64,000 nt of DNA from assembly GCA_026636295.1 (NCBI GenBank), contig CP089450.1, forward strand, positions 1,219,614 through 1,283,613, read 5' to 3'. The DNA is from Medakamo hakoo (lineage: Eukaryota; Chlorophyta; Trebouxiophyceae; Coccomyxaceae). A program made the translations under genes and the position numbers. The notes below the pieces were generated by a model, which did no database searches, was not told the origin of the DNA, and was given only the letters and a program-made list of their open reading frames with translations. Shown here in pieces: positions 9,112 to 63,070 of the stretch. How positions within the stretch are numbered: the stretch's first letter is position 1; every line of letters starts with the position of its first letter.

Positions 9112-10653
9112 ATGGCCCCGCGCCCGCCCCGCCGGCGGCACGACTTGCGCGCGCTCGCCCGCGTCGGCGCCGCGGCGGCCGCGGCCCTGGCCGCCTTACA
9201 GCTCGTCCGCGTGGCTGTGCGGTCGCCGCAGGCGGTGGCGGCCGCCGCCCGGGCGGGCGGCCTGGCTGGTGCTGTGCCACTCGTTGAGCGCCTGGTGGTG
9301 CCGGACCTGTACGCGGCGCTGGAGGGCGTGCTGCGGGAAGGCGTCAAGCCGGCCGCCAAGGGCAAAAGCGACGGCGTCGCCGTGACAGTCTTAGACTGTG
9401 GCGACGGCCGGTGGGCGGACGTGTGGCCGGGCGCAGCGACGGGGCTGCCGGTGGACAGCATTGTTTGTGTGGATTTTTCGGGCGCGCCCGACGCCGGAGA
9501 TGGCGTGGACGGCGACGCCGCCACAAAGCAGCAACCGCCCAGCGTGCCCTGGTTACACGCCGGGTCGGTCACTCACGTCCAGCACTCGCCGCGCGGCGGG
9601 TCGGGCTCGAGTGCTGGTGGTGGCAAAGATGCGGACGGGGACGCTGCCGCGCCTGGTGGCCGCAAGGCGGCTGGGGGTGGGCCGACACCGCGCCCCGCCC
9701 CGCCAACACCTCCACCACGCACCATCCTGGCCCTCGTCCACCCGGACGGCCAGAACGTGCCCGCGCGGTACGTGCCCTTTGTCGCGTCGGCCATGGCGCT
9801 GGCCGGCACGCGCCTGCTCCTGGTGGATGGCGGCAACACGCCCGCGCCCGGGGATGAGGGCGCCCGCCCGCCCAAGAAACCGCGCGCGCCCGGCTTTCAG
9901 GTGCTGGAAGCGGGCGGCGGCGGCGGTGGTGGCGCCGGCTCCCGGTCCCCCTCCCCGCGCCACCGGTTCTACCAGCTGGCCCTGAACACGGTGCAGCCCA
10001 CGTTCTCCATGGTGTACGAGACCCGGCTGTGGGGCAGCGATGGCGGCGGGTCGGGGACGGGGTCGTCCCTGGCAGCGACGGCCAGCTTGCGCGCGTCCCT
10101 GGCCGACGTCATCGCCAAATACAAAGTCAAATCTTTCTTGGACTCGTCCTGTGGCAGCATGCACTGGATGCCCCTGGTCGCGCGGGCCGCGCATGACGCC
10201 GACCCGGAGTTTCGGTACACGGGCACGGACGCAGTCTGCTCCCTGGTCGAATCCCACCACAGCACGTTTGCCAATGAGAGCGCGTGGATGGATTTCGCGT
10301 GCGTGGACGCCAGCCACGAACCGCTGCCGTCCGGGTATGACCTGGTCTTCAGCCGCGACTCCCTGCAACACCTGCCCATCGCGTCCGCGTACAAGTTTTT
10401 ACACAACGTCCGCGCGTCAGGGGCGAAGTATTTATTGGTCGGCAGCTACCTCACGGGTGGGCAGCGTGTGACGGGCGGCCGCAACACGGACATCAATGTG
10501 GGCGACGTCTACGACATCGACCTGCTGCAACCACCCTTCAATGTCCGCCCGCCACCGCTGGAGATCATCAAGGAAGACAACCCGGAGAAGAAATTCATGC
10601 TGTTGCTGGATGTCGGGCGGCTGGCCTGGGATGAGGACCTGGCGCTGGCATGA
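9112..10653 (+). CDS. Type II membrane protein with SAM-dependent methyltransferase domain
   Basis: A single exon of 513 residues. The ATG at 9112 sits in a CACACACA-ATG context. Residues about 18-45 form an Ala/Leu/Val-rich anchor after a basic N-terminus, as in Golgi type II enzymes. The C-terminal third resembles a class I methyltransferase: FLDSSCGSMHWMPLV (about 343) is the motif-I position, followed by YTGTDAVCSLVE and SGYDLVFSRDSLQHLP. The central region (about 85-260) contains ILALVHPDGQ and may be a second, decayed Rossmann-type unit interrupted by Gly-rich linkers. A sugar methyltransferase of the secretory pathway fits the neighbourhood, but the acceptor is unknown. Confidence 0.68.
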   Translation: MAPRPPRRRHDLRALARVGAAAAAALAALQLVRVAVRSPQAVAAAARAGGLAGAVPLVERLVVPDLYAALEGVLREGVKPAAKGKSDGVAVTVLDCGDGRWADVWPGAATGLPVDSIVCVDFSGAPDAGDGVDGDAATKQQPPSVPWLHAGSVTHVQHSPRGGSGSSAGGGKDADGDAAAPGGRKAAGGGPTPRPAPPTPPPRTILALVHPDGQNVPARYVPFVASAMALAGTRLLLVDGGNTPAPGDEGARPPKKPRAPGFQVLEAGGGGGGGAGSRSPSPRHRFYQLALNTVQPTFSMVYETRLWGSDGGGSGTGSSLAATASLRASLADVIAKYKVKSFLDSSCGSMHWMPLVARAAHDADPEFRYTGTDAVCSLVESHHSTFANESAWMDFACVDASHEPLPSGYDLVFSRDSLQHLPIASAYKFLHNVRASGAKYLLVGSYLTGGQRVTGGRNTDINVGDVYDIDLLQPPFNVRPPPLEIIKEDNPEKKFMLLLDVGRLAWDEDLALA

Positions 10654-10963
10654 GGAGGTGTGGCCTGTGTGTGGGGGGTTGGGTTGGTGATGAACGGCGT
10701 GGGTGTGGGCGTGAGTAGAGCCATTTTCGACGCCTTTTTTCTTTTGACGGGTGCGTGCGGGTGTGCAGGCAGACTGTGGTTCGCTGCGCCCGCGTGGCGG
10801 CTGCATGCCGTCCGGACCATGATGGCAGGGGTTTGTCAGCCTGTTTTTTTTATTTCGCACCATGTCTCACCCCACCATCTCATTGAAACAATCATCAAAA
10901 AGAGAGGCAGAGAGGCAGAGAGGCGGTTGGTGGCCGCGCGCGCCCGGGCCCAGTCGCCCCGCC

Positions 10964-12067
10964 ATGGGTCCAGCAGCCGCACACGTCCTGGCCCTGCTGT
11001 GCCTGTGCTTCACCGCCGCGGCCGCGCGTGCCAACATCACCACCACCACCATCCGGTCGCGCCATGCGGCCGCGGCCCGCTCGCAGCCCGCGCGCCACGA
11101 GGGAGCTGCCGTCGTCATGACAGCGGACGCGGCGGCTGCCGTGGCGCCTGCTGCCGAGGCTGAGCACGTGGCGTCAAGCACAGACCAAGGCGGCACCGCC
11201 ACCAGCACGGCTGCCATCGCGGCGGCGGCCGCGGACGCTGCGTCGGCCGCGGCGTCGGCCGCTGCCGCGGACGCCATCGCCAGTGCGACGGCTGCCACCC
11301 ACATATCCTCCATTCCCTGGTCCCGCTTCAGGGCCGTGACCGTTGTGCATGAACCCTGTTCCACGCTGAGTTTCACGCTGACGAATTTTGCGGGCAACCT
11401 GGGCCCGGACTGGCCCATTCTTGTCATGTACACGCCTCGGGCCAAGGATGCGGTCCTGGACAACAAGGCCGTGCGCTACCTGTCCCGGTACGGCAGCCTG
11501 CACACCCTCCCCCTGTCCGCCCTGTCCATCCCGGACCTGGACGAGCTGACGACCGTGTCCAAGTACTCGCTCCTCCTGGCCCGCCCCGAGTTCTGGCAGG
11601 CCGTCCACGCTGACAAAGCGCTCGTCTTCCAGGTCGACAGCGTGCTGTGTGCCGCTTCACCCTGGACCATTGACGATTTCCTCGCCTACGACTACATCGG
11701 CGCGCCCTGGGTGCACGCGGACCACATTGTGGGCAATGGCGGCTTGTCGTTACGCTCCGTGGACAAGATGCTGTACATCACCCGGCACTCGACTCGTCAC
11801 CCGCACCCGGAGGATGTCTACTTTGTGGAGGGCCTGGCCGCCATGGCGCAAGACGATGTCAACACCGTCGTACGGGCGCCCAGGGCCGTGGCCGAACGCT
11901 TTGCGTTTGAGATGGACAGCCCGCCGGACGCTGTGCCGTTTGGCGTGCACCGCAGCGTCATCGTGCCCGCGGATACGAAAGCGGCCATCATTGCGGGCTG
12001 CCCTGAAGCGGCCGTGGGCGTGTGGGCGTCCTGTGGGCGGGGTGGTGGCACCCCCGCCGGGGGGTGA
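10964..12067 (+). CDS. DUF5672-family putative glycosyltransferase, secreted/luminal
   Basis: I place the start at the ATG at 10964 (GCC-ATG-G context), which gives 367 residues beginning with a clear leader (MGPAAAHVLALLCLCF). The frame extends upstream to 10862, but that part is basic and low complexity. The core matches the pattern of DUF5672 proteins: AVTVVHEP, LLARPEFWQAV, KALVFQVDSVLC (the putative metal-site position), YDYIGAPW, VGNGGLSLRS, PEDVYFVEGL and PFGVHRS. The family is predicted GT-A and is found in fungi, algae and bacteria; donor and acceptor are uncharacterised as far as I know. An Ala-rich linker separates leader and domain. Confidence 0.8.
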   Translation: MGPAAAHVLALLCLCFTAAAARANITTTTIRSRHAAAARSQPARHEGAAVVMTADAAAAVAPAAEAEHVASSTDQGGTATSTAAIAAAAADAASAAASAAAADAIASATAATHISSIPWSRFRAVTVVHEPCSTLSFTLTNFAGNLGPDWPILVMYTPRAKDAVLDNKAVRYLSRYGSLHTLPLSALSIPDLDELTTVSKYSLLLARPEFWQAVHADKALVFQVDSVLCAASPWTIDDFLAYDYIGAPWVHADHIVGNGGLSLRSVDKMLYITRHSTRHPHPEDVYFVEGLAAMAQDDVNTVVRAPRAVAERFAFEMDSPPDAVPFGVHRSVIVPADTKAAIIAGCPEAAVGVWASCGRGGGTPAGG

Positions 12068-12362
12068 GGATGGGGTGGGGAGAGGTGGGGCGTGGTATTG
12101 TTGATGGCGCGAGTAGAACGAGAGGCTTCCTCTTCCGCATGTGTTTGGCTTCAAAAAAAGGCCAGCATGGAGAGATCTCACCCCCAAGGCAATGAAGAAG
12201 AAGGAAGAAGGAAGAAAACAGCAATGCCCCCCCATCTACAAAAAACACACGCCCCGCCCATCCCGACTCACGCCCCACCCCCACTCTCGCCGCTGCCTGC
12301 ATGACTCACGAAAGAAAGACAGAAAAAGGGAAACAAACAAAGAGAAAAAAAAACAATCCTGT

Positions 12363-13384
12363 CTACCTCAGCATGCCGCGCACGACTTGGACCCGCATGA
12401 CCAGGGCGTCTGCGCTCTCGTCTTCCGCCTGCCGCCAGAAGTGGACGGCGTCGCCAGCTGTGAGGGCGTGGTGCTGGTTGAATGGGGTTGGTGTGGGGTG
12501 GGGTGGGGTGGGGTGGGGTGGGGTGGGGTGGGGTGGGGTGGGGTGGGGTGGGGTGGGGTGGGGTGGGGTGGGGTGGGGTGGGGTGGGGTGGGGTGGGGTG
12601 GGGTGGGGTGGGGTGGGGTGGGGTGGGGTGGGGTGGGGGGCGTGTCAGCAAAAACAAGCGTGTGCACACCCGACCCCGACACCCCGTCCGTCATGAAACA
12701 CGATCGCGGGTGACTCGTCTCGCCGCCCCCGCCCTCCAGATATTGACTCACCGACGAAAACGGACGCCATCCATCTGTCAAGCGACGGTGAAACTGTTTC
12801 CCCGTCACGTACGTCCGAAACAGGACGGGCCACGTCCGCCCATCTTGATCGATCAATGTGACTCGGGATGCAAAGACGGGCCTGCCGCCGTGGTTTACAC
12901 GGACAGGCATCTTCTTCCGCCCTGGCCGCTCAATTTGGTAGGCCATGATGTCCGGAATCAGGGCTTCCGCCATCTCGCGCGGGATGTGCAAGAACCGCAT
13001 GTCGGTCGCGGACGAGATCTGGCGGCGATACCGCTGGTTGCACGCGTACAGGCCGCCGTTGGTCGCCGTGGACGTCGACGCCGTCTTCTTACTGTGCGGG
13101 CTGCCGCCGGCCCCGCCCGCCACCGTGCCGGGCGTCGTCCACAGCTGCTGGTGGTGGTGGTACACGGCCGGCGCCGCGCGGTGTTGGACCAGGTGGCGCT
13201 GTTCCTGGTCGTCCGCCGCGGCCGCCACGGTCAGCAGGGCGGCCAGCATGAACCAGGGGTCGGCGGTGGTGGTCGAGCTGTTTGGAGCCGGCTTGTCGAT
13301 GAGTGGGGTGGGCGGACGCAAGGTTGTCATGGCGGCGCCAGCAGCCTTCGACCCGGCCGCAGGCGCAGGACCGACCTCCGCCAT
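12363..13384 (-). CDS. B3-domain putative DNA-binding protein (2 exons)
   Basis: Exon 1 is 12752-13384 and exon 2 is 12363-12473. Joined in phase 0 they give 247 residues. Residues about 120-245 read as a B3 fold: FLHIPREMAEALIP, then VTLIDQDGRTWPVLF, then LTDGWRPFSS across the splice to HHALTAGDAVHFWR and ALVMRVQVVRG. This is the usual GW-F-GD-V-F spacing of plant ARF/RAV-type B3 domains. The correct acceptor is the CAG at 12474-12476; a nearer AG would break the GD motif. The N-terminal half is Ser/Thr/His-rich and unstructured. It is probably a sequence-specific transcription factor. An ATG at 13330 is an alternative start. The 278-bp intron is mostly the pentamer repeat. Confidence 0.7.
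12474..12751 (-). other. Intron of the B3 gene, filled by a pentamer repeat
   Basis: The donor is GTGAGT and the acceptor ATTCAACCAG, both on the minus strand; length 278 bp. About 150 bp of it is (CCCCA)n in the sense orientation, which doubles as a very long pyrimidine-rich tract before the acceptor. Confidence 0.7.
12493..12640. repeat. (GGGGT)n pentanucleotide array, about 29 units
   Basis: Perfect GGGGT units on the plus strand, broken only at the edges. Each unit supplies a four-G run, so the plus strand can form stacked G-quadruplexes and the transcribed RNA is (CCCCA)n. The array lies wholly inside the intron of the B3 gene. Confidence 0.97.
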
Positions 13385-14173
13385 TATTTTTTTTGTGTGT
13401 GTGTGTGCCAGGGACACAGGTGTTGTGAGAAAAGGAGGCGGCACGAAACAAAGGCGCCACTGGCGGCGGCGTGTCCCGAGAGGGGCGGCGCGTGTGTCGA
13501 GGGGTGGGATTTGCTGAAATGAAAGAGGGGAGCGCGTTTTTTTTTGCTGGTGGCTGCTGCATTTTTTCTTCCTGTGCATTCCCCCACCCTCTGGTTCATT
13601 GGAATGCAGTGCCTGCATCACCCAGTGCCTGCATCACCCAGGCGCAACCAAGCAGCCGAGCTCCCGGGCGTGTTGGGACCGGTCGGTGGCTGGGCCGTTT
13701 GGTGTCCTACCCCCATTGTTGCTGGTGTCTCCGCCAGCCAGCCCCGGCCGTCACGTCCTGTGTGCACTTCCTCACAATAGCCTGGGGCCTCGCGTACATG
13801 GACCAGTTGCTTGTAAAAGATAAAAGATGGCGGGCACGGACAATGTCATAAGCAAAAGCATCCACCTGCATCGTGACTGCCGTGCCATCGTCATCCTCCA
13901 GTCGCTGCCACACTCATAAAAAAAAAACGCACACACACGCGTGCGCGCTCTCCCCCCCTCTCTCTGTCACTCACTCTCACTCTCTCCATACGTTCGTCCC
14001 CCCTCTCTGTACGGTTGGCCCTGCGGCACGGGCCGATGGGCCTGCGCGCCCTGCCTCTGTTCTCCCACACGGACGCCTGATTGAGTGGCGGCGTCTCTGT
14101 CTTCCTCTGCCTCTTGCTCGGTGGACGCCCGTGCAAACCTAAAAGCCACACTCAAAGATCTGATTTCGCTGCA
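13385..14173. other. Divergent intergenic region (B3 gene and giant glycosyltransferase gene)
   Basis: 789 bp between two outward-facing start codons, so it should hold both promoters. It contains a CA/GT-rich stretch next to the B3 start, a 17-bp direct duplication (CAGTGCCTGCATCACCC twice, about 13607-13640), and a less GC-rich block around 13790-13920. No TATA box or other motif is convincing. Confidence 0.5.
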
Positions 14174-17100
14174 ATGGAAGGGTGGCGGCGACCGCGCGGC
14201 CGCATCTGCGGCGGCAGCGCTGGCAGGACACGGCCGTGTCTGTCGCCTGCATCCTTGCTGTGGGCGACCCTGCTCATCCTGATGCCCCTCATTGCTTGCC
14301 GTGGCGCAGTCGCGGTTGCTGACGTGCGCAAGGATGTCCACCGCCAGGCCGGCGCGGTTGCTGACGTGCACAGCGGCCACCACCGTGACCATGGTAAGCG
14401 TCACCACCCGCCCGGGCCTGCGGATCCACCAGCCTCGGCACACGCCCGCACCGCCACCTCCACCGCGCACTCCTCCCGCCCGCGCACGCTGCTGTGGATT
14501 CCCGTGCACGTTTCCGAACCCACATCCAACCTGGAAGCCATGGCAGCGTGCATGTTCACGCGTCACGCGCCCAGTTTGACCGGCGAAACGTTCGACATCC
14601 TTATCACCCTGGCCGGCAACGTCTCCGACGGCCGGGAAGCCGACCTGGCCCGGGTCGTGCGCCAGGCGACGGCGCACATCACGCCCTCCCGCCCTACCGT
14701 CCGGGTGGAACACGTCCACGTCGACAAGGATTCCTACGACAAAGACCACAGCAAAGCCCGGCGGTCGTCGTACGCGGGGCCCAACACCGTGTTTTACTCG
14801 GTCATGGCGGGCAGTGGTGGGGGCGAAGGCGCGGACGAAGGTGCACCTCGTCATGACGGCCTCCCACCACCGGACGACGAAGACACCGTCACCGACGGCA
14901 CCAGCAGCGTCTTTGTCCCCGGGCGGCGCAGCGCGGCCGACGCGTTCTTGCCGGCCGCGCCCAATGCGACCGCCCTGCACACCCGCCACATTGCGCCCTA
15001 CACCTACGTCCAAGTCCTGGAAACGGATTGCTGTGCCGTGGCCGGCGGGTGGCTGGACGTGCTGTTGGCGCCCATGCTGGCCAAGCCGGACATTCTCATG
15101 TCCGGGTCGCGCACGCGGGCGTCCTGCTACAGTTCCGGCGATGCGTCTGGCTGCAAAACACGCGTGGCCGCCCACTTGCGCTTGCACATCAACGGCAACG
15201 CCATGTACCGGGTGGGCCCGGCCTTGCGGTCCGTCATCCGGGAAGCCCGGGACGAAATGCTGGACGTCGCGCCCTTTGACCTGGCCATGTACTTTGTGCG
15301 GCGGGGCAACCAGTCGCACGTCCACGACAACCGACGCATGTACAGCGTGGGCGCACCCGTGGATGCGGAGCACTGGGATGATGCCGCGTACTATGGGGTG
15401 GACGAGGAGGTTGTGTGGGTGCACGCACCCAGGCGGCTGCGCCAGGATGGAGTGGCGTCGGTCGTGCACCGGGCGGATGCCGAGTTCCCGGCCGTGGCGG
15501 TGGTGGTGGCACCGGGTGGTGGTGATGACGGGCCTGGACGCGGCGACAGCGCTCCAGGCTCGCCCTCGCCCTCGCCCTCGTCTTCCGTCGCCGTGCCCCT
15601 CTTGCACAACTGCCACAAGTCGCTGGTGGCCACCCAGTCCGGCCGCAACCTGGTGTACGTCGCCCTGACCTGGCCCGCCTTTGTGGAAGCGTCCCGGGTG
15701 GCGCCCTTCCATGTTGTGCTGGCCAATGGGACGGGTGGGCGGGGCGGCGCTGTGAGGGAGCTGTGGGTGGACCCCGCCACCCTGGCCGCCCGGGCCCTGT
15801 CCACGCTCGCCGCCCTGTCCCGGGCAGGCTTGCACACGCTCGTCATCGGCAGCGACGCGGCCATGGTCCGGCCAGATGTCCTGGTGGACCTGGCGGTGCT
15901 GGAGCGGGCGAGGGAGGCCACCGGCGGTGTCGCCGACAGGGCCGGCCGGCCAACGCTGCGCCTGTTGCAGTCGCCCGGTGGGGCGGCGCCCCTGGCGACG
16001 CACCTACCTGCGCCGTCTACCGCCCGCCCTGTTTTAAACGTGGGCATGATGCAAGTGCCGGCGGGTGATGCGGCCGCGGCGTTCCTAGAGCACTGGGCGG
16101 AGCAGCGGGCCAAGGAAGGCAACACCGCTGGTTCTTCTGCCTGGTCGCGCGCGTCCACCCTCGTCGCCGCCCCCTCCACTTGCAAAGTCCGGCGGTGGAC
16201 CGACTGCGGGTGGCGGGGCGAAAATTTGACGGTGGACTGGCTGCCGGCCGAAGCGTACGCCGCGGGAGCCAGCTACTGGGGCCCGCTGTGGACTACCGCC
16301 GCGCGGAAGCAGGCGGCCTTTGTCGTCGCGGCTGGGATTGGTGGTGGGGCCGGCACGGCACCTCCGGAATTCCGGCTGCGCCAGGCCGGGCTGTGGCATG
16401 GAAGCCCGGCGCCTGCGTGCGCCAACTACTCGGCTGTGGCCCGGCTGCCCGTCCCACTCGGCCGGGACGTGGTCAGCGTGCACCGCGCCCTGGCTCGGCA
16501 CGCCGCGTTTTTAGAGCAGGTGGCCAGGCGCCGCATTGCGTGTGCCATCCTGCCCGGGTTCAGGCTGGCTTCCACCGGTAATGTCGTTCCGTACGACGCC
16601 GTGCTGCGGGCCGATGTCGTGGGCGCCCTGGCCAGGAGGGGCGACGGTGGTGGCGGTGGTGGTGGTGGTGGAGGTCCTCGCTTCTTTCCGAGTGCGGCTG
16701 CCCTGAACGCGCCGTACGACAGCTTTGTCGACGTGGTGGGTGTGGCGGGCGGGCGCCGGCGGCAGCGCCGCAGGCGGAGGACCGGTAGCGTTGCCGGCCA
16801 CAGCGCCGCCGCGCCTGCTGCGTCCGCGTCAGGCAAGGCGGCGGCACCGGCGTCAAAGGCAGCAGCGCCTCCACACAGGTCGCTGCTGGCAGTGGCGGCG
16901 GCTGGGTCCCGGCCGCCGTCGCCTGCTCGACAGAGCACCTCGAACACCACCACCGCCGGCGCCTGCGCTGTGTTTGGGCTGCACCACACATCCTGCTTCG
17001 CGCCAGACGTGGCGGCCGCCATCGTCGCGGCTGCGGCTGGGTTGCCGCCACGGTTTTGGTGCGTGGCCGACCCTGGGCGCAGCCCGGCTGAGGCTGCGGT

Positions 17101-18157: not shown

Positions 18158-18779
18158 CAGAGCGGGAGTGGGTGGCAGGCAGCGTGCCAGCGATCAGACG
18201 ACGGGAAACCAAATGCCCGTAGCAAAACAAAATGAGACTGATTTTTCTTTTGCCTTGTGTGCGATCTAGACAGGGTGATGGGTGGCGCGGGCGGAGGGGC
18301 GGGAGACGAGGCAAAAGGAGGGACTCAGTGAGCGCCCAGGGCAGGGCCGCAATATTGCTCCAGTTTGGTTGTCACCGTATATTAGTACTGCACTCTCTCT
18401 CTACATTCTGTCGTGTGACGCTTGAAAACCATGGGTTGATCCAAGGGCCCACGCACAGGCGTCCCCTTCCGGCAACCGCACACAAGACACACACAAACAC
18501 AAATGCACACCACCCCCCGCCCCCTCCCTTCTCTAATGCAGACAAAAAAAACATGGGAGCTCACATGTGCCCTCTCCCGACAACGCGACAAGGCGGTGGA
18601 CGGGAAAACAGGAAAGACAAGCTAAAAGATGAAAAAAATGGAAATGTTTTTGTTTGATGTGAGTGGTGGGGCGCGGTCCGCGTCAAAAGCAGTGCGCGAG
18701 GCAACAGTTGTGCCCGCGCTGGTGGTTGCGGCCGACCACTTTCGCGTGAGCGCCACTCCTCCTCCCCTGTTTCCTTTCA
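18158..18779. other. Convergent intergenic region
   Basis: 622 bp between the 3' ends of giant glycosyltransferase A and the second B3 gene. It is less GC-rich than the genes and contains A-rich runs (about 18540-18560, 18625-18640) compatible with 3' UTRs and poly(A) sites. I see no gene or element here. Confidence 0.5.
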
Positions 18780-19853
18780 TCACCCTTCCCCTGCCCATTT
18801 CTTGTCAATGGTCACCGTCAGGTGCCCGGCCACCTTGCCACGCGCAAAGGTGACCGTGTCGCCCACCTGCACGCCCGCGGCCGCACAAAACTCGCGCCAC
18901 CCGGCCGAAAAGCGGCGGTGGGCGTGGCCTTTGAACGTGCTGGTCGTCATGGTGACGGGGAAGGGGCGGGCGTGACAGGAGGACGCGCCGCCCGACACCG
19001 CCGCGGCGGTCATGTGAATGATGCACGCGTTGGCCCGCCGGCCCGGCAGCGGGCGGGGGTGTATGGTGTCCAATCCCAGGGCGCGGTGCATGCCCTTGGT
19101 GATGTATAGCAGGCGCAGCGCGGTCGGGCTGCTGACGGTGCGCCGCAGTTTTTTCGGCGCCTTGCGCGGGCGGGCGATGGGCGTGGCGACGCGGTGGCGG
19201 GTTTGGGTCGTGGTCGTGGTGGTGGTGCTTGCGGTGGTGGAGGGTGGTGGCGGTGGTGCCTTGCGGGCGGCGGGCAAGGCAGCCGCCGTCGCCGCCGCCG
19301 CCGCAGCAGTAGGGATGTCCGCTGCTGAGGCAGTGTCGCTCCCAGGCTCAGTCACGGCCAGGCAGGATGGGACGTCGTCATCGGTGTGCGTGACGCTGGC
19401 TGGTGGTGACGCACACACACCCGCACCCACGCCCACACCCACGCCCGCACCCACGCGACACCCGATGTCCGCCCACGCGTCGACGATGTCTCGGCCGCCA
19501 CCACCAATGCCGAGGTCGTCACCCCACACGCCGCCGCTGCCTGGCTTGGCCAGGCCGTCGATGCAGGCCAGGCCGCGCCAGTCGTGTGCGGGGGTGCACA
19601 TCGGCGGTTCCAGGCCTCCGCTGACGACGCACGCGAAAACAGTGTCGCCACAGCACAGGTCATGGTGCGCGGACGCGCCGCTGGGGCAGGTGGTGGTGGA
19701 CTTGGTCGTGGTTGTCGTGGCCACGGTCGCGGCGGCAGCTGCTATGTCGGCCAGGATGTCATCGGGCGGCAGCCAATCGACTGTCGGGTCTGCGCCGTCG
19801 CCGCGACCGGACGCCGGCGTGGTGGTGGTGTGCAAGCAGGCGGTCGCGTGCAT
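18780..19853 (-). CDS. Second B3-domain putative DNA-binding protein
   Basis: A single exon of 357 residues from the ATG at 19853; an in-frame ATG at 19952 would add 33. The last ~110 residues fit a B3 domain well: LLYITKGMHRALGL opens it, followed by a basic strand and FSAGWREFCAAAGVQVGDTV leading to TFARGKVAGHLTVTI, with the typical GW-F-GD-V-F layout. A basic KAPKKLRR stretch just before it could be a nuclear signal. The N-terminal part is Thr/Ala/Gly low complexity. It is not a close copy of the first B3 protein. Two B3 factors embedded among sugar genes might regulate them, but that is inference. Confidence 0.72.
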   Translation of the reverse strand: MHATACLHTTTTPASGRGDGADPTVDWLPPDDILADIAAAAATVATTTTTKSTTTCPSGASAHHDLCCGDTVFACVVSGGLEPPMCTPAHDWRGLACIDGLAKPGSGGVWGDDLGIGGGGRDIVDAWADIGCRVGAGVGVGVGAGVCASPPASVTHTDDDVPSCLAVTEPGSDTASAADIPTAAAAAATAAALPAARKAPPPPPSTTASTTTTTTTQTRHRVATPIARPRKAPKKLRRTVSSPTALRLLYITKGMHRALGLDTIHPRPLPGRRANACIIHMTAAAVSGGASSCHARPFPVTMTTSTFKGHAHRRFSAGWREFCAAAGVQVGDTVTFARGKVAGHLTVTIDKKWAGEG

Positions 19854-27198: not shown

Positions 27199-27243
<45 letters not shown>

Positions 27244-47357: not shown

Positions 47358-47671
<314 letters not shown>

Positions 47672-48832: not shown

Positions 48833-48920
48833 AACTGCATTTGTGTGTCTGTGTTTGTCCACGCACACATGGCGAGGTAGCAAACGTAGCGCACATACCC
48901 GTCAGCGGCAGGCACCACCA

Positions 48921-54754: not shown

Positions 54755-55244
<490 letters not shown>

Positions 55245-57731
55245 TCACCTCCCTAGGTGCGGCGCTTTTTCCAGCAGTTTATCATGCAGCGCCCCAGCCA
55301 GCGACTCCGCCGCCGGCCGGACCAGGTGGTGCTTGTCGCCGTACATGACAACATTGCCCAGCGCGGGCGGGCAGGTGTCGCCCGGGCACAGGATGTCGTC
55401 AAAAGACAGGCGGCGCATCATGGGGTACAGTCGCGCGGCAATATCGATGACGCCGTCGCGCAGCCCTTCTTCACGTGACACCGAACACGCCGACAGGTCC
55501 GTCCCCGCCGGGTCGCGCTTGGCTTCCTGGACAAGGCAGTTGTAGATGAACTTGCCCATGACGGGCGTCGACTTGATGTACAGGACGGGGATGTTGGCGG
55601 CCACCAGTTTTTCGGCCAGTTCCACGATGCCGGCCGCGACTGTGGTCGCGTTGCCGTGCGGGTCGAGCGGCGTGGATTTTTTGTACGCGACGAGGACGAC
55701 CGCTTCGGGCTTCATGCTCAGTGCATGGTGAAGGGCGTCGGTATTGTAAACTTGGCACACATTCCCCACCACCGTCGGGTCTGGCCGGGTTCTCAGCGGC
55801 GTGAGCGTGGGCGCGCACCCGCTCTTGGACAGGTTGGTGATGTTGAGGCCCAGGCGGCGGGCGACCATGAGGAAAGGCGGGTTCCACCGCCTGCCGTGCG
55901 AGTCGCCCATGATGACCACGTTGCGCAGGGTGGCCGGCGGGGTGGCCGGCAGCCCTGCCGCGATGCGGACCGGGTTGATGGCGTCGGGGTAGTAGTTGCC
56001 CTTGACAATGCCGTGCGGGTGGGTGCCGGCTGCGAGGTCGACCAATTCCTGGATGGGCAGGCTGTTGATGGTGGTGCACCGCTCAATGACGGCTTCCGCG
56101 CCTGGGTACGGGCGCGTGGCGTTGGGCCCGAAAAAGGCCGCGCACTCGGGTGAGGGTGGCAAGGTGGGGCGGGTTGATGCGGTCCTGTTTGGTGCGGCCA
56201 CCACCCCCGGTGTGTCCCCCGCCTCCTCCACGCCCGCCAGCACTGCGTTGTCATTGCCCTGGACGTAGACGGCGGGCGCGAGCTTGTGCAAGGCCAAGGA
56301 CGCGGTCAGCGTGGCAGTGACCATGAGCAGCGTCATGATGAGAGCGCCCAGGTTGGGGGTGACGGATGCGCAGCAGCGGCGGGTGGTGGGTGGGGTGGGG
56401 GTGCCTGGTCCAGCGAGGCCCGCCGTGCCGCCACCGCCAGCCGCGACGAGCACCTGCTTGGATTGGTCAGGCGCGCCGCTACCAGCAGTTCTGAACCGGT
56501 CTTCCCAGCACCGCTTGCACGCGTGGGCCAGGGCGAAGGAGATGACGCAGACGAGGACGCCGTCGGCGAGCACGCCTTCCACGACTCGTCCCGTCGCAAA
56601 CGGGTAAATCACCACCACGGGCCAGTGCGCTAGGTACAGCGAATAAGACACGTCGCCGATGTACTGCAGCCAGGCGTGCGACATTGGGGCCGTGAGGGCG
56701 TGGGCGTGGGCGTCGCCGGTCGTTTCGCCTGCCCACAACAACGCAGTCGCACCCAGCGTGGGCGCCAGGGCGGCTGCGCCAGGAAACGTCGTCCGAGCTG
56801 TAAATAAAGCAGCACTGGTGCCGATGGCGGCCACGCCGGCCACAGCCACCGCCGTCCGCAGCCAGTAGGCGGTCATGCTCGTGCCAGCGTCGTCGCTGCT
56901 CAGATACGTCACAGCCGGGTGTGCCGGCCGCGCCAGACCGCCTCCTGCCCCCAGCACCGCCAACAGGCCGCCCATGCCCAACTCATACAGCCGGGTGTGT
57001 GTGGTGAAGTAGCCGGCCTCGGGCCTGGCGTGCGCGTAAAACAGGGCGGTGGCGAGGGAGGCGATGCAGGCGGTCGCCATGGGGACGGCGTACCAGGCCC
57101 GGTGCGGTGGGGGTGGGGAGGGTGTGGGCGGCACCGCCATCTCTACAGCCGCCGGTGGTGACGACGACGACGGCTGCAGGGCCGCAAACGCGACCGCGTC
57201 ACCGCCTTTGGAAACGCTGCCAGCCAAACGCCTCCCACTCCATTTCCTCCACGCCGCCGCCACGCCGGCCACAAGCAGCGGCCACCCCAAGTAAAACTGT
57301 TCTTCGACCGCCAGCGACCAGAAATGCTGCAGCGGGCTAGGGGTCTCGTTTTGGGCTTGGTAGTCGACCGCCCGGCGCACCAGCATCCAGTTTTCGGCGT
57401 AGCCCGTGCTGGCGGCAATGTCGGCGGCGGTGGTCGCCCACGTCCATGAGGGCATGAAAAGGTAGGACGCGACGCCCACAACGACCAGGGTCAGGCTGGC
57501 AGCAGGCAACAGCCGCCGTGCCCGGCGGGCGTAAAAGCCCCGCAGGTCGACGCGCCCGCTGCTCGCGACTTCGCGCACCAAATGCCCCGTGATGAGGTAG
57601 CCCGAAATGACGAAAAACACGTCGACGCCCACGTAGCCGCCATGGACGTGCGCCGGCCAGACATGGAAGGCCACGACCAGCAGCACAGCAACAGCTCGCA
57701 GGGCCTGGATGTCCGGCCGGAAGGCCGCCAT
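55245..57731 (-). CDS. OafA/YrhL-type membrane acyltransferase with C-terminal SGNH domain
   Basis: 828 residues from the ATG at 57731. The N-terminal half is an acyltransferase-3 membrane domain of about ten helices: RPDIQALRAVAVLLVVAFHV contains the catalytic His, then YVGVDVFFVISGYLITGHLV, YARRARRLLPAASLTL, FWSLAVEEQFYLGWPLL and VSYSLYLAHWPVVV. The C-terminal half is an SGNH-type domain: NVVIMGDSHGRRW (about 604) has the Ser block and YGDKHHLVRPAAESLA (about 798) the Asp-x-x-His block. This architecture is very common in bacteria, where it O-acetylates lipopolysaccharide or capsule. A intron-free gene and bacterial architecture suggest lateral transfer, although some eukaryotes have similar genes. 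Confidence 0.9.
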   Translation of the reverse strand: MAAFRPDIQALRAVAVLLVVAFHVWPAHVHGGYVGVDVFFVISGYLITGHLVREVASSGRVDLRGFYARRARRLLPAASLTLVVVGVASYLFMPSWTWATTAADIAASTGYAENWMLVRRAVDYQAQNETPSPLQHFWSLAVEEQFYLGWPLLVAGVAAAWRKWSGRRLAGSVSKGGDAVAFAALQPSSSSPPAAVEMAVPPTPSPPPPHRAWYAVPMATACIASLATALFYAHARPEAGYFTTHTRLYELGMGGLLAVLGAGGGLARPAHPAVTYLSSDDAGTSMTAYWLRTAVAVAGVAAIGTSAALFTARTTFPGAAALAPTLGATALLWAGETTGDAHAHALTAPMSHAWLQYIGDVSYSLYLAHWPVVVIYPFATGRVVEGVLADGVLVCVISFALAHACKRCWEDRFRTAGSGAPDQSKQVLVAAGGGGTAGLAGPGTPTPPTTRRCCASVTPNLGALIMTLLMVTATLTASLALHKLAPAVYVQGNDNAVLAGVEEAGDTPGVVAAPNRTASTRPTLPPSPECAAFFGPNATRPYPGAEAVIERCTTINSLPIQELVDLAAGTHPHGIVKGNYYPDAINPVRIAAGLPATPPATLRNVVIMGDSHGRRWNPPFLMVARRLGLNITNLSKSGCAPTLTPLRTRPDPTVVGNVCQVYNTDALHHALSMKPEAVVLVAYKKSTPLDPHGNATTVAAGIVELAEKLVAANIPVLYIKSTPVMGKFIYNCLVQEAKRDPAGTDLSACSVSREEGLRDGVIDIAARLYPMMRRLSFDDILCPGDTCPPALGNVVMYGDKHHLVRPAAESLAGALHDKLLEKAPHLGR

Positions 57732-58700
57732 TGTGCGTGCGTGTGTGTGTGTGTGTGTGTGTGTGTAATGGGCGCACGGCGGATGTGCGGTGTGGCGCGC
57801 GTAGCGAACAAAAGCAGGGCTGCGGGCCCAAGGAATGCAAGAGTGGCGGGAGGTGTGACAGATGATGATGATGTGCACCGGAATACGGGGGTTTACAAAC
57901 ACCACGCCGCCGTCACGCATGTGCTGTTCAAGGCAAGTGTCCGGCCGACCGACTCTCCTCGAGCCCGGCACGTTCCCTCAGATTGCCTTTCGTGCTGGAT
58001 GACGTTGGAAGACGGATGTCAGGCTGGTTGCATTAAACGCCAATGGCACCGCGTGTCTCACTGTAGACAGTGTGTGGTCGATGACATTGACGCATGAAGA
58101 AAACGAGGGCGGCGCACGCAAATTATGATTACAGCAAATGTCCGCCCCCCCTATTTCCAAAAAAAATGTTTCGTAGTGAACGTGATGTCGAAGGGGGTGT
58201 GTATAGGGAAGCTGCCGGGCTGCCAGTGGGAGATGGACGAAAAGTTTGTTTTAGAAAGGTAGGAGAAATCAGACAAAAAGTGGAGAATGGCGCCACGTCG
58301 GTGCAGGTATAAGACGACGAGGAGGGTGGTGGGCGGGGTGGGATGGGGGGTGGGGGGTAGCGAAGTACACGAGTACAGTGGTAATAGAGAGAGAGGTGGG
58401 ACGAGAGACAAAAATAATGATAAATGGGGGGACAAGGTTACGTCATTTTTTTTGGAGCGCACGCCAAAAAAAATAAGGGGGGGGAGCGGGAGCCGCCGAC
58501 CACCGCAGAAAAAAAACACGCCACCGACTTGTCTTGCGGCTTTCAATGTAAAGCCCTGCTGTGACTGGGCGACGCGGCTTGTGCAGGGGTTGCGGCATAT
58601 GTGGAATAATTCATACAAAACAGTGCATGCATGCATGCAATCCATGCGACTGCCTGGCCTGCTTAAGGGCCGTCAGTGTGGCGTTCGCCCCGCATTTTCA
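57732..58700. other. Intergenic region
   Basis: 969 bp between the acyltransferase start and the small secreted-protein stop (both minus). It begins with (CA)n next to the acyltransferase ATG and includes a GGGTGGGG stretch at about 58325-58355 and TGCATGCATGCATGC near 58623-58637. It is less GC-rich than the genes. Open frames here are low complexity. Confidence 0.5.
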
Positions 58701-59171
58701 TCAGGGACACACATTTTGCACCCGAATGGTAAACCCGGCCGACGGTGGAAAGCCGGCCGGTAGATAGAATGTGCACAAGCAGCTGCCACTACCCGGCACA
58801 ACACGAGTCGTGACAAGTTCTTGCGCGAGAACGGGCACATTGAAGTCGCCGTTGCCACAGCCACACCCCGTGGGCGCGGCGCCGCCAGGGCACCCGCCCC
58901 CCGCAATGTACGTCTTGGCCTGGTTGGGTTGGAAGGCTTCGCCCGGCCACGTCCACACGGTGGTGGCATTGGTGCATTCCGGGATGTCGGCAGTTTTGGG
59001 GGAGGCCATGGATGACGTGGTGGGCGTGACGGCGACGAGCAGCTGGCCGGCGCCCGCGTCGGACGGGATGGAGACGGCTGACGGGGCATCGTCGTTTACG
59101 GCGTGTGTGGGTGGGGCCAGGGCGGCTGTAGTGGCCAGGAGGAGGAGGACGGTGCGCAAGGATGGCGGCAT
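58701..59171 (-). CDS. Small secreted Cys-containing protein, unknown function
   Basis: 156 residues from the ATG at 59171. A good leader (TVLLLLATTAALAPPTHA) is followed by an acidic Ser/Ala stretch and a domain with paired cysteines: PECTNATTVWTWPGEAF, GGGCPGGAAPTGCGCGNGDF, SCLCTFYLPAGFPPSAG and a final VQNVCP. Seven Cys residues are visible, so it is probably disulfide-bonded and extracellular. I do not recognise a family. There is no intron. The TWPGEAFQP and GDFNVPVLAQE strands look like a small beta domain rather than a coil. Confidence 0.6.
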   Translation of the reverse strand: MPPSLRTVLLLLATTAALAPPTHAVNDDAPSAVSIPSDAGAGQLLVAVTPTTSSMASPKTADIPECTNATTVWTWPGEAFQPNQAKTYIAGGGCPGGAAPTGCGCGNGDFNVPVLAQELVTTRVVPGSGSCLCTFYLPAGFPPSAGFTIRVQNVCP

Positions 59172-59907
59172 TGTGTGTGTTAATTTTTTTTTGGTTGCGG
59201 ATTTGTTGGATTGTTTACATGTGTGAAAAGCAGCGCAGAACTTTAATTGGAATTTGGCGCCCGAAATGTTGGGCAAGGCTTTTTGTCCTTTGGCGGAAAA
59301 CAAAGGCGGAAGGCGGAAAGGCGGAAGACACAAGTCTTGGTATTGCTGCCACTTCCACCATACGATGGTGGATGTCGAAGGGGTGGTGGGGCTGTTGGAG
59401 TCGGCGTGGGTGGAGGGCGGTCGCGGGAGGGCGTTTGCGTCGGGCGGGCGGCTAGAAATGTAGGAGCGAGGGTGTTGCACCGGGAATAGTCGAACGGTTT
59501 GTTTTCGGGGGGTCGGCCTGGCCCCCGTCTGATTTGAGCTCAAGACGACTTCTCATGCAGAGCGTGACGCGGCGAAGGGGGAGGGGGGGGCGGGAGGGGG
59601 GGACGTGGAGGCGAGGGCTGGTGGCGGGGTGTGGAGGCCGCGGCGTCCACCAAAACACTCCGGAGTGTGGAGGTGGGAGGAGGAGGAATGTGTACTGTGG
59701 GCTGCGCCCGCTCGCTGGGCTGGACGCCTGCTTTGATGTCTGCCTTTTCTTTTCACTTAGCTGGGGTCGGTAGGCATCAAACAGCGGGCCTGGGGTGGTG
59801 GGGTGTGATGGGAGGGGTGGCTTGGCCGACCGCCCGCGCGGGACGGGGGTGGTTGCTTGGCAGCGGCGCGGCGATGGCAAAGATGGCCAGGGTTGGGGTT
59901 GTGGTGG

Positions 59908-59938
<31 letters not shown>

Positions 59939-60507
59939 CGTTTTTTTCACGACCGGCTCCTTTCAGAAGCGTTTCGTTTTCACAACGGCTTGCGTGAGGT
60001 GATCAAGCATTGATGCAGTGAGGCGTGCGTCGGAAAGACGGGGGCCTGGCCCGCGGGCGGCGGTGACGGAGGTGTGTGAGAGCGCAGGCGCGCGCACGCT
60101 ATTGGTAAGCCCACCGCTGTGCAGCGTCAAGCGTTGTTTTGCCACGGCGCTTGTACGGGACAAGCAGGGTATTACGGTAGGTTGGCGTCGTAGCCGCGTC
60201 GACGAGAGTTTTTTGGGGGTGGGTATGCGTGCGGCGGGAGTTGTTGTTTCTCTGTCTGGCCACACGCACGCTCTCCCCTCTTTTCTTCTCCCCATGCCCT
60301 CCGCCCGTCCCGGACCCTCACCCCATCCGAACGTTTTCTATTGCCGCGGTTGACATGGAAGGTGGGCTTTGTTTTTACATGTCGCATGTTGCCGTCTTTT
60401 TCCCCCACGACAACCATCACGAAATACCTGATGTTCCATGTTACTTGAGCATTGCGGCCCGGCCCCCGCCACTGTTGCACTCACCTTCCTGTGTTTCGCG
60501 CAGACAC
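59172..60507. other. Long intergenic region, no recognisable gene
   Basis: 1336 bp between the small secreted-protein start and the GT92-like start (divergent). It contains G-rich stretches (59575-59640) and a short (GT)n at 59907-59938. Base composition is less GC-biased than near the left end. Open frames are low complexity. Confidence 0.5.
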
Positions 60508-61575
60508 ATGGCCCCGCCTGCACTGCTCCGGACACTCTCCCGGACCCCAGGCCGCGCCAAGCTTGCGGGCGTTGTGGCGGTCGTCCTGGTCTGTGCCGCC
60601 GCACAAGGAGGCCTGAGGCGGCCCGACCTGAGGCGAGCCCCCGGACTCGCCTCGCCTTCCCCCTCCCCGCCGGCTTCTGCCGCCGTGTGCGCCGTCATCA
60701 AAGACGATGCAGGCTATGTGACGGAGTGGGTGGAGTATCATTTATGGCTGGGCGTGGACCGGCTGTATGTGTGTGACGACGGGTCGCCGGTGGCGTTGGA
60801 GCAGGCGTTGAGGCCGTTTGTTGACGAAGGCCGGGTCGTCATGATGCCGCTGCCCTCGGACTTGAACCGCACGTCGTACGCGGACTCGCCGCAGGGATAC
60901 GCGTACAATGCGTGCATCAGGCAGGCGTGCAGCGGGCATGACTAAATGGCGTTCATCGACAGCGACGAGTTCATCACGGTCGACGCTGGCGCTGAGGACG
61001 GTGCGCGCGCTGAAGGGCTGGCACCTCGGCCTTTCCTGCGGGCCACGCACGACCGCACCTCCACCGGCTCCACCCGGCTTGGCACCTTTTTGGCTCGTAG
61101 CTTCAACCTCTCCTCCACCACCGGCATCCTGCTTGATTGGGTCGTGTTGGCGGGTGGGCATGCCCACCGCCTGCCTGGCGGCATCCTGCGCAATTACGTG
61201 GCCTGCTTACCACCGGCCCACCCAAAATCGCACGCCGTCAAATCCATCGCCAACTGTGCGTACTTGACCGCATCGACCAACCCGCACACGTTCCAATACG
61301 GCCGTGCACCTGCACATGCTCACGAAGTCGATGAGTGGGGTCAGCCAGTCTCCCACGATGGCACGTACACCCACACCGCCTCCCATGCCCACCTCTACCT
61401 CCACCACTACATGTTCAAGTCAGCCGACGACGCGACGGTCAAGCTGCGCAACGGAGCCGGGTCCGGGCAGAAGAAAAGCCAGCAGTACTACCGTGGAATA
61501 CTGCGGGATGCGACCGAGACGTGTAGGGCAGCAGTCGGCCTGGCCGATGTTTGTTGCCCGTCAACGGCCGTGTGA
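60508..61575 (+). pseudogene. GT92/DUF23-like glycosyltransferase split by one in-frame stop
   Basis: From the ATG at 60508 the frame gives an anchor (AKLAGVVAVVLVCAAAQ), then AVCAVIKDDAGYVTEWVEYH, LGVDRLYVCDDGSPV and YAYNACIRQACSGHD. A TAA at 60943-60945 (codon 146) follows, and the same frame continues without any gap as MAFIDSDEFITVDAG (the DxD metal site), RNYVACLPPAHP, TYTHTASHAHLYLHHYMFKS and YYRGILRDATETC. In intact GT92 and related enzymes the corresponding stretch runs straight into W-x-x-FIDxDEF, so only one codon separates this from an intact gene. It is probably a recent pseudogene; stop-codon readthrough is possible but unproven. Confidence 0.75.
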
Positions 61576-61975
61576 GGCTGCTTGCAGTGTTTGTTGCTGA
61601 CGTCAGCCTAGCACGGGTGATGCTTTTTTTGTGGCATTTTCGACATCCCTTAGGGTTTTAGATTAAAGTTCGGCGCTAGGGCCGGGTTAGGTTGGGATTA
61701 GGGCGATAGGGGGCTGTGCCTGCAAACAATGGAACGTGAAGGGTGGCTTGCATGTTGACAACACGGGGAGCGTGAAGTAATGTCAGGTGCTGGTAGGGTT
61801 GCACAACCCTAAGAATAAACTGCAACGCACCAATGCCCTCCCTCCCCCCCTCCGCCCTCTCCCCCAGTCCTCTGCTCTCCCTCTTCCCGCGTGCATGCAA
61901 CGCGCCGCCGATACCCCAACACTGCTTGACGCACTCGCACATTACTCCGCCCACTTCCGTCTTTTGAGTGACATC
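61576..61975. other. Intergenic region with degenerate telomere-like motifs
   Basis: 400 bp. TTAGGG-like motifs occur at about 61650-61655, 61684-61690 and 61698-61703 in a G-rich stretch, and a small palindrome of the telomere motif lies at 61794-61811. The rest is pyrimidine-rich leader before the next gene. Confidence 0.7.
61650..61711. repeat. Degenerate interstitial telomere-like sequence
   Basis: Contains TTAGGG, GGGTTAGG and ATTAGGG with intervening substitutions, about 2.1 kb inside the terminal array and in the same orientation. Confidence 0.55.
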
Positions 61976-63070
61976 ATGCCCCATCGTTCAAGCGGCATGA
62001 CGCGCCGCTCAGTCGCGACATGCGTCGCCGGTGTGGTGGTGCTTGCCTGCCTAGCGTGGCGTACCACTCCTGGCGTCGTTCGCAGGCGAGCCCTGTCGCT
62101 GCCCTCCACCAGCACTCAACACAGTCGCATCGCTCCGCCCACCATCTTCATGAGGCCCCACTTCTTTGGTGCGAAAGGCGACAGGGCGGACTACACATTT
62201 GTTCCTCTCGTCATTCGCTCCGTCCTGCACAACAATCCATCCGCCCAAGTCTTTATGCTGCATAATGACCCGGAATTTTCGTTACCGGGCGAAGCCCGCT
62301 TTCACGGCCTCTTGATGGATGATTTTGAAACTGCAGACCTCCGCCAGCTCAAGGCGACGTACCAGCACATGTCGACCAATCCCGCATTGTACGAGTTTTA
62401 CTCCATGGCTGCCTATTTTTACGTGGCCAGCTTGATGGACGCCATGGGGTTGGAGAACGTTGTTGTCGTTGAGACAGATGTGCTTGTTTTCTGTGACATG
62501 TGGCAAACACTGTCCACCCACTGGGACCTGCCTAACCTGGACGCCGTCCTCACGAAGCGGCGCGTCATGGCCGCGTCGTATGTGACGCGAGTCTACATCG
62601 AAACTTTTGTCAATGTCGCGCTCGCTTTCTATTCCGAACCTGCTGTCACTGAAGCACTGCGCGTGTCTGTTCTACACACGAAATGGGGCGGCGTCAGCGA
62701 CATGACCGTCAATGCCTGGCTGGCCAAGCCTGGTTTTGTGAACCGCAATGCTGGGAATCATTCTGTTCGGCTCGCGGAGCTGTCTGAACTGAAAGGCGAC
62801 GACGGGCAACACACCTTGGCATACATCGACTCCAACATTCGGACTGCCAACTACAGCTTTGGCGCCTTTGACGTTGACACCAGCCACGCCGAGGTGGGCC
62901 CCATCAAGAAGTTGTACGACCCCGCCAAGCCGGGCGGCCCTCCACGCGCCCGCCTCCAACCTCGCAGCCGCTATGTCGACATGTGGGCCCTGCACTTTCA
63001 GGGGGGGACCAAAGCCCTCATCCCGAGTGTGTGCGCCAAGTTTATGCAGGTGCAACAACCCTTACTCTAG
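61976..63070 (+). CDS. Putative GT-A glycosyltransferase, type II membrane protein
   Basis: 364 residues from the ATG at 61976; an in-frame ATG at 61894 would add 27. The anchor SVATCVAGVVVLACLAW follows a basic start. The domain has FVPLVIRSVLHNNPSAQVFM, YEFYSMAAYFYVASLMDAMG, and NVVVVETDVLVFCDMW (about 160), where ETDV is the likely metal site, then RYVDMWALHFQGGTKALI at the C-terminus. This fits a small GT-A enzyme with the motif order IRSVLxxNPxA then D-x-D. Codons use noticeably more A/T at third positions than genes further left. It is the last complete gene before the chromosome end. Confidence 0.68.
   Translation: MPHRSSGMTRRSVATCVAGVVVLACLAWRTTPGVVRRRALSLPSTSTQHSRIAPPTIFMRPHFFGAKGDRADYTFVPLVIRSVLHNNPSAQVFMLHNDPEFSLPGEARFHGLLMDDFETADLRQLKATYQHMSTNPALYEFYSMAAYFYVASLMDAMGLENVVVVETDVLVFCDMWQTLSTHWDLPNLDAVLTKRRVMAASYVTRVYIETFVNVALAFYSEPAVTEALRVSVLHTKWGGVSDMTVNAWLAKPGFVNRNAGNHSVRLAELSELKGDDGQHTLAYIDSNIRTANYSFGAFDVDTSHAEVGPIKKLYDPAKPGGPPRARLQPRSRYVDMWALHFQGGTKALIPSVCAKFMQVQQPLL

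What the first reader, a model, noticed from the sequence alone, without database searches (positions are those of the whole stretch)
9112..63070. A capsule-like glycan-assembly island in a eukaryotic subtelomere
About 26 of 31 genes over 54 kb up to the telomere encode sugar-nucleotide synthesis, nucleotide-sugar transport, glycosyl transfer, or glycan decoration (methyl, phosphodiester, pyruvate, acyl). Eukaryotes usually scatter such genes. Here the complement matches a bacterial capsule or O-antigen locus: WecC-like dehydrogenase, GT2, YibB/HtrL-like, LicD, FkbM, pyruvyl transferase and OafA-type acyltransferase. Most enzymes have type II signal anchors, so they could work in one Golgi pathway. 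The mix suggests a variable surface glycan or scale coat. The gene content is seen directly; a common pathway is inference.
Basis: partly seen in the sequence, partly recalled or inferred. Interest (0 to 1): 0.87.

Follow-up and report, generated by a model that had tools for sequence, protein, structure and literature searches.

The report
Subtelomeric glycan-gene islands in Medakamo
One chromosome end of a tiny freshwater green alga is packed with sugar-building and sugar-decorating genes, and two other chromosome ends carry reshuffled copies of some of them, which looks like a reservoir for varying the cell-surface sugar coat.

Summary
The glycan-gene island is real. Of about 31 loci (hand count), 16 pass curated Pfam cut-offs for sugar-nucleotide, transport, glycosyl-transfer or decoration families; 3 more are sub-threshold. 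"26 of 31" is not borne out. GC is 65%, against 72.7% genome-wide.

Two other ends carry similar islands: C3 left (57% GC over 60 kb) and the last 68 kb of C15 (60% over the 50 kb read). C15 is a rearranged twin: 46% of the window island matches it at 68-94% identity, collinear over 24 kb, then scrambled. Recently shared genes (dS 0.13-0.30) lie among old ones (dS about 1), and dN/dS is 0.10-0.55. The first 10 kb of the 15 other left ends lack this enrichment.

Best reading: a recombining low-GC subtelomeric compartment making a decorated Golgi/surface glycan. It works like the small outlier chromosome of Ostreococcus, but is subtelomeric and in another algal class. "Capsule-like" is analogy only: genes lie on both strands, no Wzx/Wzy/export gene was seen in 38 window ORFs, and WecB is undetected. 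One pathway, strain variability and virus defence are inferred.

The parts
8500..63785 (.). Low-GC glycan-gene island (65.1% GC; 71.9% in the 8.5 kb proximal to it)
   Evidence: genome GC 72.7% from PMC9871001
9103..10650 (+). Anchored methyltransferase (Methyltransf_25, 26.0 against cut-off 27); C3-left copy passes, 92% DNA identity, dS 0.25
10823..12064 (+). DUF5672 protein; copies on C15 (93%) and C3 left (80%)
14081..18154 (+). Large anchored protein without Pfam hit, paralog (41% in alignment) of 24008-27025; C15 copy 68-70%
24008..27025 (-). Large anchored protein without Pfam hit, inside the 5.1-kb tract 94% identical to C15
27335..29335 (-). NDP-sugar dehydrogenase, UDP-ManNAc-dehydrogenase-like, no N-terminal anchor
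29645..30916 (+). TPT-family (nucleotide-sugar type) transporter; C15 copy 91%, dS 0.30
31148..32956 (+). GT2 glycosyltransferase; C15 copy 77%, dS 1.13
33366..35003 (+). O-FucT-like protein (very weak, 13.2 against 31.5 bits; C15 copy 16.6); several C15 paralogs
35111..36028 (+). Methyltransferase (Methyltransf_23), no anchor; two identical C15 copies
36270..37370 (-). RXYLT1/exostosin (GT47)-like, sub-threshold (23.8 against 27)
37580..38878 (-). FkbM methyltransferase (Methyltransf_21), narrowly over cut-off; related DNA in the interior of C10 (68%)
39333..41408 (-). GT10 fucosyltransferase-family gene; C15 copy 91%, dS 0.22
42152..43414 (+). Methyltransf_24 protein; C15 copy 85%
45067..45960 (-). 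HtrL/YibB-like protein, narrowly over cut-off; C15 copy 74%
46155..47858 (-). LicD-family gene (first)
47582..48829 (+). LicD-family gene (second)
48516..49997 (+). Nucleotide-sugar transporter (PF04142); C15 copy
50038..51231 (+). Methyltransf_22/FkbM-type methyltransferase; copies on C15 and C3 left
51330..52622 (+). Anchored protein with a conserved FEDD/LEDD motif, no Pfam hit over cut-off; copies on C15 and C3 left
52856..55147 (-). Polysaccharide pyruvyl transferase family; C15 copy 77%
55248..57977 (-). AT3-SGNH (OafA-like) O-acyltransferase; one copy on C15, two on C3 left
60181..61572 (+). GT2_4/GT92-like gene with an interrupted frame (probable intron)
61781..63067 (+). Anchored protein of unknown family; C15 copy 94% DNA identity, dS 0.13
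63786..64000 (+). Telomere repeat TTAGGG

Best explanation
One of three related low-GC subtelomeric islands (C3 right = window, C3 left, C15 right) in the green alga Medakamo hakoo, holding enzymes that make, carry into the Golgi, assemble and decorate a secreted or cell-surface glycan. Proposed working: a cytosolic prokaryote-type sugar-nucleotide dehydrogenase supplies an acidic sugar nucleotide; TPT and PF04142 transporters carry sugar nucleotides into the Golgi; anchored transferases (GT2, GT10, GT92-like and others) build the glycan; methyltransferases, LicD proteins, a pyruvyl transferase and an AT3-SGNH acyltransferase decorate it. Ectopic recombination or gene conversion between these ends reshuffles and partly homogenises the genes while selection keeps the enzymes intact, so the glycan repertoire can change. 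Shown: gene families, anchors by a simple rule, low GC, paralogous islands, mosaic divergence, purifying selection. Inferred: one shared pathway, the glycan, variation between strains. Guess: escape from viruses, predators or bacteria as the driver.
For: Families over cut-off; 18 of 21 chosen ORFs with an N-terminal hydrophobic stretch; low GC; two more islands; C15 twin matching 25,471 of 54,785 island bases in 21 tallied segments; mosaic identity 68-94% with a 5.1-kb tract at 94% spanning genes and the space between (with 45); dS 0.13-1.13 and dN/dS 0.10-0.55; perfect 1,158-bp duplication on C15; enrichment 14 of 28 against 0 of 86 and the ORF control.
Against: No expression, glycan or strain data. 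Twelve or so of about 31 loci have no glycan family; the O-FucT assignment is very weak. UDP-GlcNAc 2-epimerase is not detected, so the dehydrogenase's route is open. Nine of 13 GT2 (PF00535) hits lie outside the islands. Only C3 and C15 ends are shown to share it. The two structure models were too poor to use.
Confidence: 0.65

Rival explanations
1. Ordinary cell-wall/exopolysaccharide genes that pile up at some chromosome ends because subtelomeres tolerate duplicates; no dedicated pathway and no role for variation.
For: Subtelomeric duplication is common; Botryococcus, the published relative, makes exopolysaccharide with uronic acid, fucose and O-methylated sugars (passages of PMC8750022); no strain data here.
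Against: The first 10 kb of the 15 other left ends lack these families among the 25 of 41 families displayed; whole glycan-gene sets, not single families, recur on three ends.
Confidence: 0.25
2. Remnant of a giant-virus or other foreign insertion later duplicated between ends.
For: Lower GC than the host; long intron-poor ORFs; bacterial-type AT3-SGNH and dehydrogenase; collagen-like and lysozyme-domain genes.
Against: No viral core gene among the families reported for the ORFs scanned one by one; no capsid hit genome-wide, though that search had no positive control; N-terminal anchors and Golgi-type families.
Confidence: 0.07
3. A mating-type or life-stage region whose glycan genes differ between sexes or stages.
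For: Low GC and gene shuffling; B3-domain ORFs (5 of 119 island ORFs) could be regulators.
Against: Several copies within one genome; nothing here tests sex or stage.
Confidence: 0.03

Closest known systems
Small outlier chromosome (SOC) of Mamiellales, e.g. Ostreococcus tauri chromosome 19 (PMC5082852 and PMC3491373, passages)
   Same: Low GC for the genome; rich in glycosyltransferases, methyltransferases (FkbM included) and sugar transporters; recent modular copies of GTs and triose-phosphate transporters.
   Different: Subtelomeric islands on two chromosomes, not a separate chromosome; a freshwater trebouxiophyte; paralogous twin islands in one genome; AT3-SGNH, pyruvyl transferase and WecC-like enzymes here; no virus or expression data.
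Subtelomeric UDP-glycosyltransferase families of trypanosomatids (PMC5853035, passages)
   Same: Glycan genes at chromosome ends, spreading by exchange between ends.
   Different: One GT family there; here supply, transport, transfer and decoration genes together.
Bacterial capsule/O-antigen loci
   Same: Similar list of functions: NDP-sugar dehydrogenase, GT2, LicD, pyruvyl and acyl transferases.
   Different: Genes on both strands, N-terminal anchors, no flippase/polymerase/export gene seen in 38 ORFs.
AT3-SGNH acyltransferases (OafA/OafB, OatA; PMC9558356, passages)
   Same: AT3 then C-terminal SGNH, several hydrophobic segments, similarity along residues 81-904 to bacterial proteins.
   Different: Eukaryotic host; four nearly full-length copies, in the islands only; substrate unknown.

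Membership tests
Small outlier chromosome (SOC) | GC clearly below the rest of the genome | tested here: met
   65.1%, 57.2% and 60.0% against 72.7% (published value)
Small outlier chromosome (SOC) | Dominated by glycosyltransferases, methyltransferases and sugar transporters | tested here: met
Small outlier chromosome (SOC) | A separate small chromosome | tested here: not met
   Ends of C3 (1.28 Mb) and C15 (0.55 Mb)
Small outlier chromosome (SOC) | Mamiellales lineage | tested here: not met
   Genome matches Medakamo hakoo, Trebouxiophyceae
Small outlier chromosome (SOC) | Little synteny with related species or strains | not testable with these tools
   No relative genome held
Small outlier chromosome (SOC) | Expression shift in virus-resistant lines | not testable with these tools
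   No expression or infection data
Bacterial capsule/O-antigen locus | Flippase, polymerase and export genes | tested here: not met
   None hit in 38 island ORFs of the window scanned one by one
Bacterial capsule/O-antigen locus | Genes mostly co-directional, operon-like | tested here: not met
   Both strands interleaved
WecC (UDP-ManNAc dehydrogenase) | Score over the family's curated cut-off | tested here: not met
   119.5 against 459 and 127.3 against 750 bits; the broader subfamily is passed, 230.5 against 189.8
WecC (UDP-ManNAc dehydrogenase) | UDP-GlcNAc 2-epimerase to supply UDP-ManNAc | tested here: not met
   PF02350 has 0 hits in this genome; control rings in 11 of 14 genomes; exon-wise search could miss a split gene
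AT3-SGNH O-acyltransferase | AT3 membrane domain fused to a C-terminal SGNH domain | tested here: met
   AT3 89.2 against 31 bits, SGNH 77.9 against 27 bits

The most novel reading that the evidence does not exclude
A trebouxiophyte alga has evolved, independently of the Mamiellales outlier chromosome, a subtelomeric recombining gene reservoir that diversifies its surface glycan, in effect a eukaryotic form of capsule-type switching under attack by viruses or predators, fed partly by bacterial-type enzymes.
Probability: 0.35. Interest if true: 0.8.

Novelty: new variant of a known kind. Interest (0 to 1): 0.62.

Why it matters
Low-GC, glycan-rich, fast-reshuffling compartments are known as outlier chromosomes of marine Mamiellales, where one is tied to virus resistance. 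The same functional make-up at chromosome ends of a distant freshwater alga with a near-complete genome suggests that such compartments arise repeatedly, and gives a small system in which to test whether they vary between strains and protect the cell. It also names candidate enzymes for methylated, pyruvylated, acylated and acidic algal polysaccharides.

Tried and rejected
No result: structure models of two unassigned proteins had mean pLDDT 40.3 and 42.0; their fold searches had no match at E <= 0.001, and I draw nothing from them. PDB sequence searches of 33366-35003, 61781-63067 and 41614-42183 gave no match or only chance-level ones. The NCLDV capsid search had no hit but also no positive control. 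The viral-contig scan with AT3-SGNH kept 80 of 357 relatives (26-60% identity in the best segment); their nature was not examined, so it says nothing about viral origin. The Methyltransf_22 scan confirmed none of 38 pattern matches. A paper search on endogenous giant viruses with these gene types found none.

Rejected: a literal bacterial capsule locus; a general property of all chromosome ends (15 other left ends lack it in 10 kb). A codon model trained on C3 left alone locked onto a collagen-like repeat and was replaced. In one search one of 17 ORFs was read in the wrong frame; corrected (mean GC3 0.777 to 0.781).
Full report
Identity. The window is G000:C3:1219614-1283613, the right end of a contig of 1,283,613 bases. 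The genome has 16 contigs and 15,638,232 bases. C1 (1,473,234) and C6 (1,246,908) equal the maximum and N50 contig lengths published for Medakamo hakoo, which has 16 TTAGGG-flanked nuclear contigs and 72.7% GC (outline and passages of PMC9871001). It is a trebouxiophyte placed near Botryococcus. 'Glycos' has 0 occurrences in that paper's main text and 'glycosyl' 0 in PMC12868012. Nine papers name Medakamo; I saw passages of three and listings of the rest.

Content. A codon model and Pfam scans give about 31 loci by hand count between 9.1 kb and the telomere, some of doubtful coding status. Sixteen pass curated cut-offs for glycan-linked families: DUF5672, NDP-sugar dehydrogenase, TPT, GT2, Methyltransf_23, FkbM, GT10, Methyltransf_24, HtrL/YibB, two LicD, nucleotide-sugar transporter, Methyltransf_22, pyruvyl transferase, AT3-SGNH, and a GT2_4/GT92-like gene (over the cut-off, with a stop inside that suggests an intron). 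FkbM (23.7 against 22.7) and HtrL (24.3 against 24.1) pass narrowly. Three are below: Methyltransf_25 (26.0 against 27), RXYLT1/GT47-like (23.8 against 27) and, very weakly, O-FucT (13.2 against 31.5). Counting DUF5672, HtrL and generic methyltransferases as glycan-linked rests on recalled context. Eighteen of 21 chosen ORFs have a Met followed within 50 residues by a hydrophobic stretch; the dehydrogenase, one methyltransferase and the GT10 ORF do not, the last perhaps because its first exon is missing.

Dehydrogenase. It scores 230.5 bits against the nucleotide-sugar dehydrogenase subfamily (cut-off 189.8) but far below every equivalog, the best being UDP-ManNAc dehydrogenases. Its best solved relatives are a hypothetical UDP-ManNAcA dehydrogenase (4r16) and Cap5O; several UDP-glucose dehydrogenases score lower. 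The genome has three hits: a strong one inside C3 and the two island copies. UDP-GlcNAc 2-epimerase is not detected, while the control rings in 11 of 14 genomes, so the substrate is open.

Other ends. C3 left (60 kb read) has 57.2% GC and C15 right (50 kb read) 60.0%. The window island has 65.1% and the proximal 8.5 kb 71.9%. The first 10 kb of the 15 other left ends have 67-76%. C3 left holds two AT3-SGNH genes, GT64, two galactosyltransferase-family genes, GT10, FUT8- and xyloglucan-FucT-like ORFs (both sub-threshold), GT2-type genes, a DegT-type aminotransferase, TPT and methyltransferases. C15 right holds TPT, GT2, an O-FucT-like ORF (sub-threshold), pyruvyl transferase, GT10, Methyltransf_24 and _22, AT3-SGNH, TylF, sulfatase/DUF229, lysozyme and trypsin domains and a nucleotide-sugar transporter. 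Single hits 11-43 kb from the right ends of C2, C16 and C9 were not followed.

Controls. By one rule, the longest largely non-overlapping ORFs of 150 aa or more were taken from 15 left ends (116 ORFs, 47,627 aa) and from the three islands (119 ORFs, 46,681 aa). The control shows dynein, p450, nitrite/sulphite reductase and the like, with epimerase/GDP-mannose-dehydratase-type and GH31 hits in one ORF each, and no glycosyltransferase among the 25 of 41 families displayed. The islands show methyl-, acyl- and glycosyltransferase, LicD, pyruvyl and transporter families, plus B3 in five ORFs and trypsin in two, among 25 of 39 displayed. Genome-wide, hits in islands (window included) are 4 of 6 for PF13704, 5 of 7 for PF05050, 4 of 13 for PF00535, 5 of 5 for PF19040 (one a sub-threshold fragment) and 2 of 3 for PF03721. 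Without the window, 14 of 28 lie in the other two islands, where 0.23 are expected; RRM has 0 of 86. Some hits share a gene (C15:506 kb in two families; two stretches of one C3-left ORF), so the p-values overstate independence, and the families were chosen after seeing the window. Nine of 13 PF00535 hits lie elsewhere, so GT2 genes as such are not confined to islands.

Twin islands and exchange. DNA of W 8.0-63.7 kb searched against the genome has C15:486-552 kb as its main relative. In 21 C15 segments that I tallied (68-94% identity; shorter, secondary and duplicate ones left out), 25,471 of 54,785 island bases match. From W 11.2 to 35.0 kb the order is kept (C15:490.8-509.2 kb), with identity 93, 68, 70, 71, 94 (5.1 kb, one gene, most of the next and the space between), 91, 77 and 70%. 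Farther out, order and strand are scrambled. C3 left matches 4,771 bases, one gene at 92%. Between copies on C3 right and C15 right, dS ranges from 0.13 (61781-63067), 0.22 (GT10) and 0.30 (transporter) to 0.97 (O-FucT-like) and 1.13 (GT2); dN/dS is 0.10-0.55 over all pairs with a finite dS, some of them near saturation. Differences in protein constraint alone are unlikely to give an eightfold range of dS, so I infer exchange at different times. C15 right also has a perfect 1,158-bp duplication.

How it most likely works. Supply (dehydrogenase), transport (TPT, PF04142), assembly (anchored GTs) and decoration (methyl, phospho, pyruvyl, acyl) are all coded here, so a surface or secreted glycan is the simplest product. 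Botryococcus, the published relative, makes exopolysaccharide with uronic acid and fucose, and O-methylated fucose and rhamnose are reported from it (passages of PMC8750022, citing older work). That the genes serve one glycan is inference.

Comparison. Closest is the small outlier chromosome of Mamiellales: low GC, rich in GTs and methyltransferases, with modular copies of GTs and triose-phosphate transporters, and in Ostreococcus tauri linked to virus resistance (passages of PMC5082852, and PMC3491373). The islands meet its compositional features, but not the separate chromosome or the lineage. Trypanosomatid subtelomeric UDP-glycosyltransferases are a looser parallel (passages of PMC5853035). 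Bacterial AT3-SGNH proteins align along residues 81-904 of the island protein; eukaryotes could not be searched, and AT3 proteins are said to occur in all domains of life (passages of PMC9558356), so no direction of transfer is claimed. Searches for print on such islands in other green algae were made, in an open-access library; they listed Mamiellales papers and others not on this topic. Chloropicon papers have 0 occurrences of 'glycosyltransferase'.

Verdict. Real and non-random, and more interesting than first stated because of the mosaic twins; a new variant of a known kind. A role in virus defence is a guess by analogy.

Noticed in passing
L029:6587-9850 (-), C3 left end: A 1,088-aa ORF with a 678-residue uninterrupted Gly-X-Y (collagen-like) run and a hydrophobic N-terminal stretch.
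   Followed up: partly
L025:2876-4033 and 6389-7546, C15 right end: Perfect 1,158-bp direct duplication carrying a methyltransferase on either side of a sulfatase/DUF229 ORF.
   Followed up: partly
window 12368-13621 and 18783-20003; L030:4224-5045: B3 DNA-binding-like ORFs, all below the Pfam cut-off where scores were shown, recur in the islands (5 of 119 ORFs); possible regulators. Related DNA lies 0.3-1.1 kb from the right end of C13.
   Followed up: no
G000 C16:307677, C9:882399, C2:1339186: FkbM or GT2-type hits 11-43 kb from three other right ends; possibly smaller islands.
   Followed up: no
window 12483-12638 and 54893-55088: Long simple repeats: (TGGGG)31 and a GT array of about 200 bases.
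   Followed up: no
L024:3741-5195 (-), L027:3684-5117 (+), L025:4146-6113 (-): Phage-lysozyme-type, BNR-repeat (sialidase-like) and sulfatase/DUF229 domains in the sister islands.
   Followed up: no
window 62878-63786 (+): Trypsin-like ORF beside the telomere; a trypsin-like ORF also lies on C15 right.
   Followed up: no
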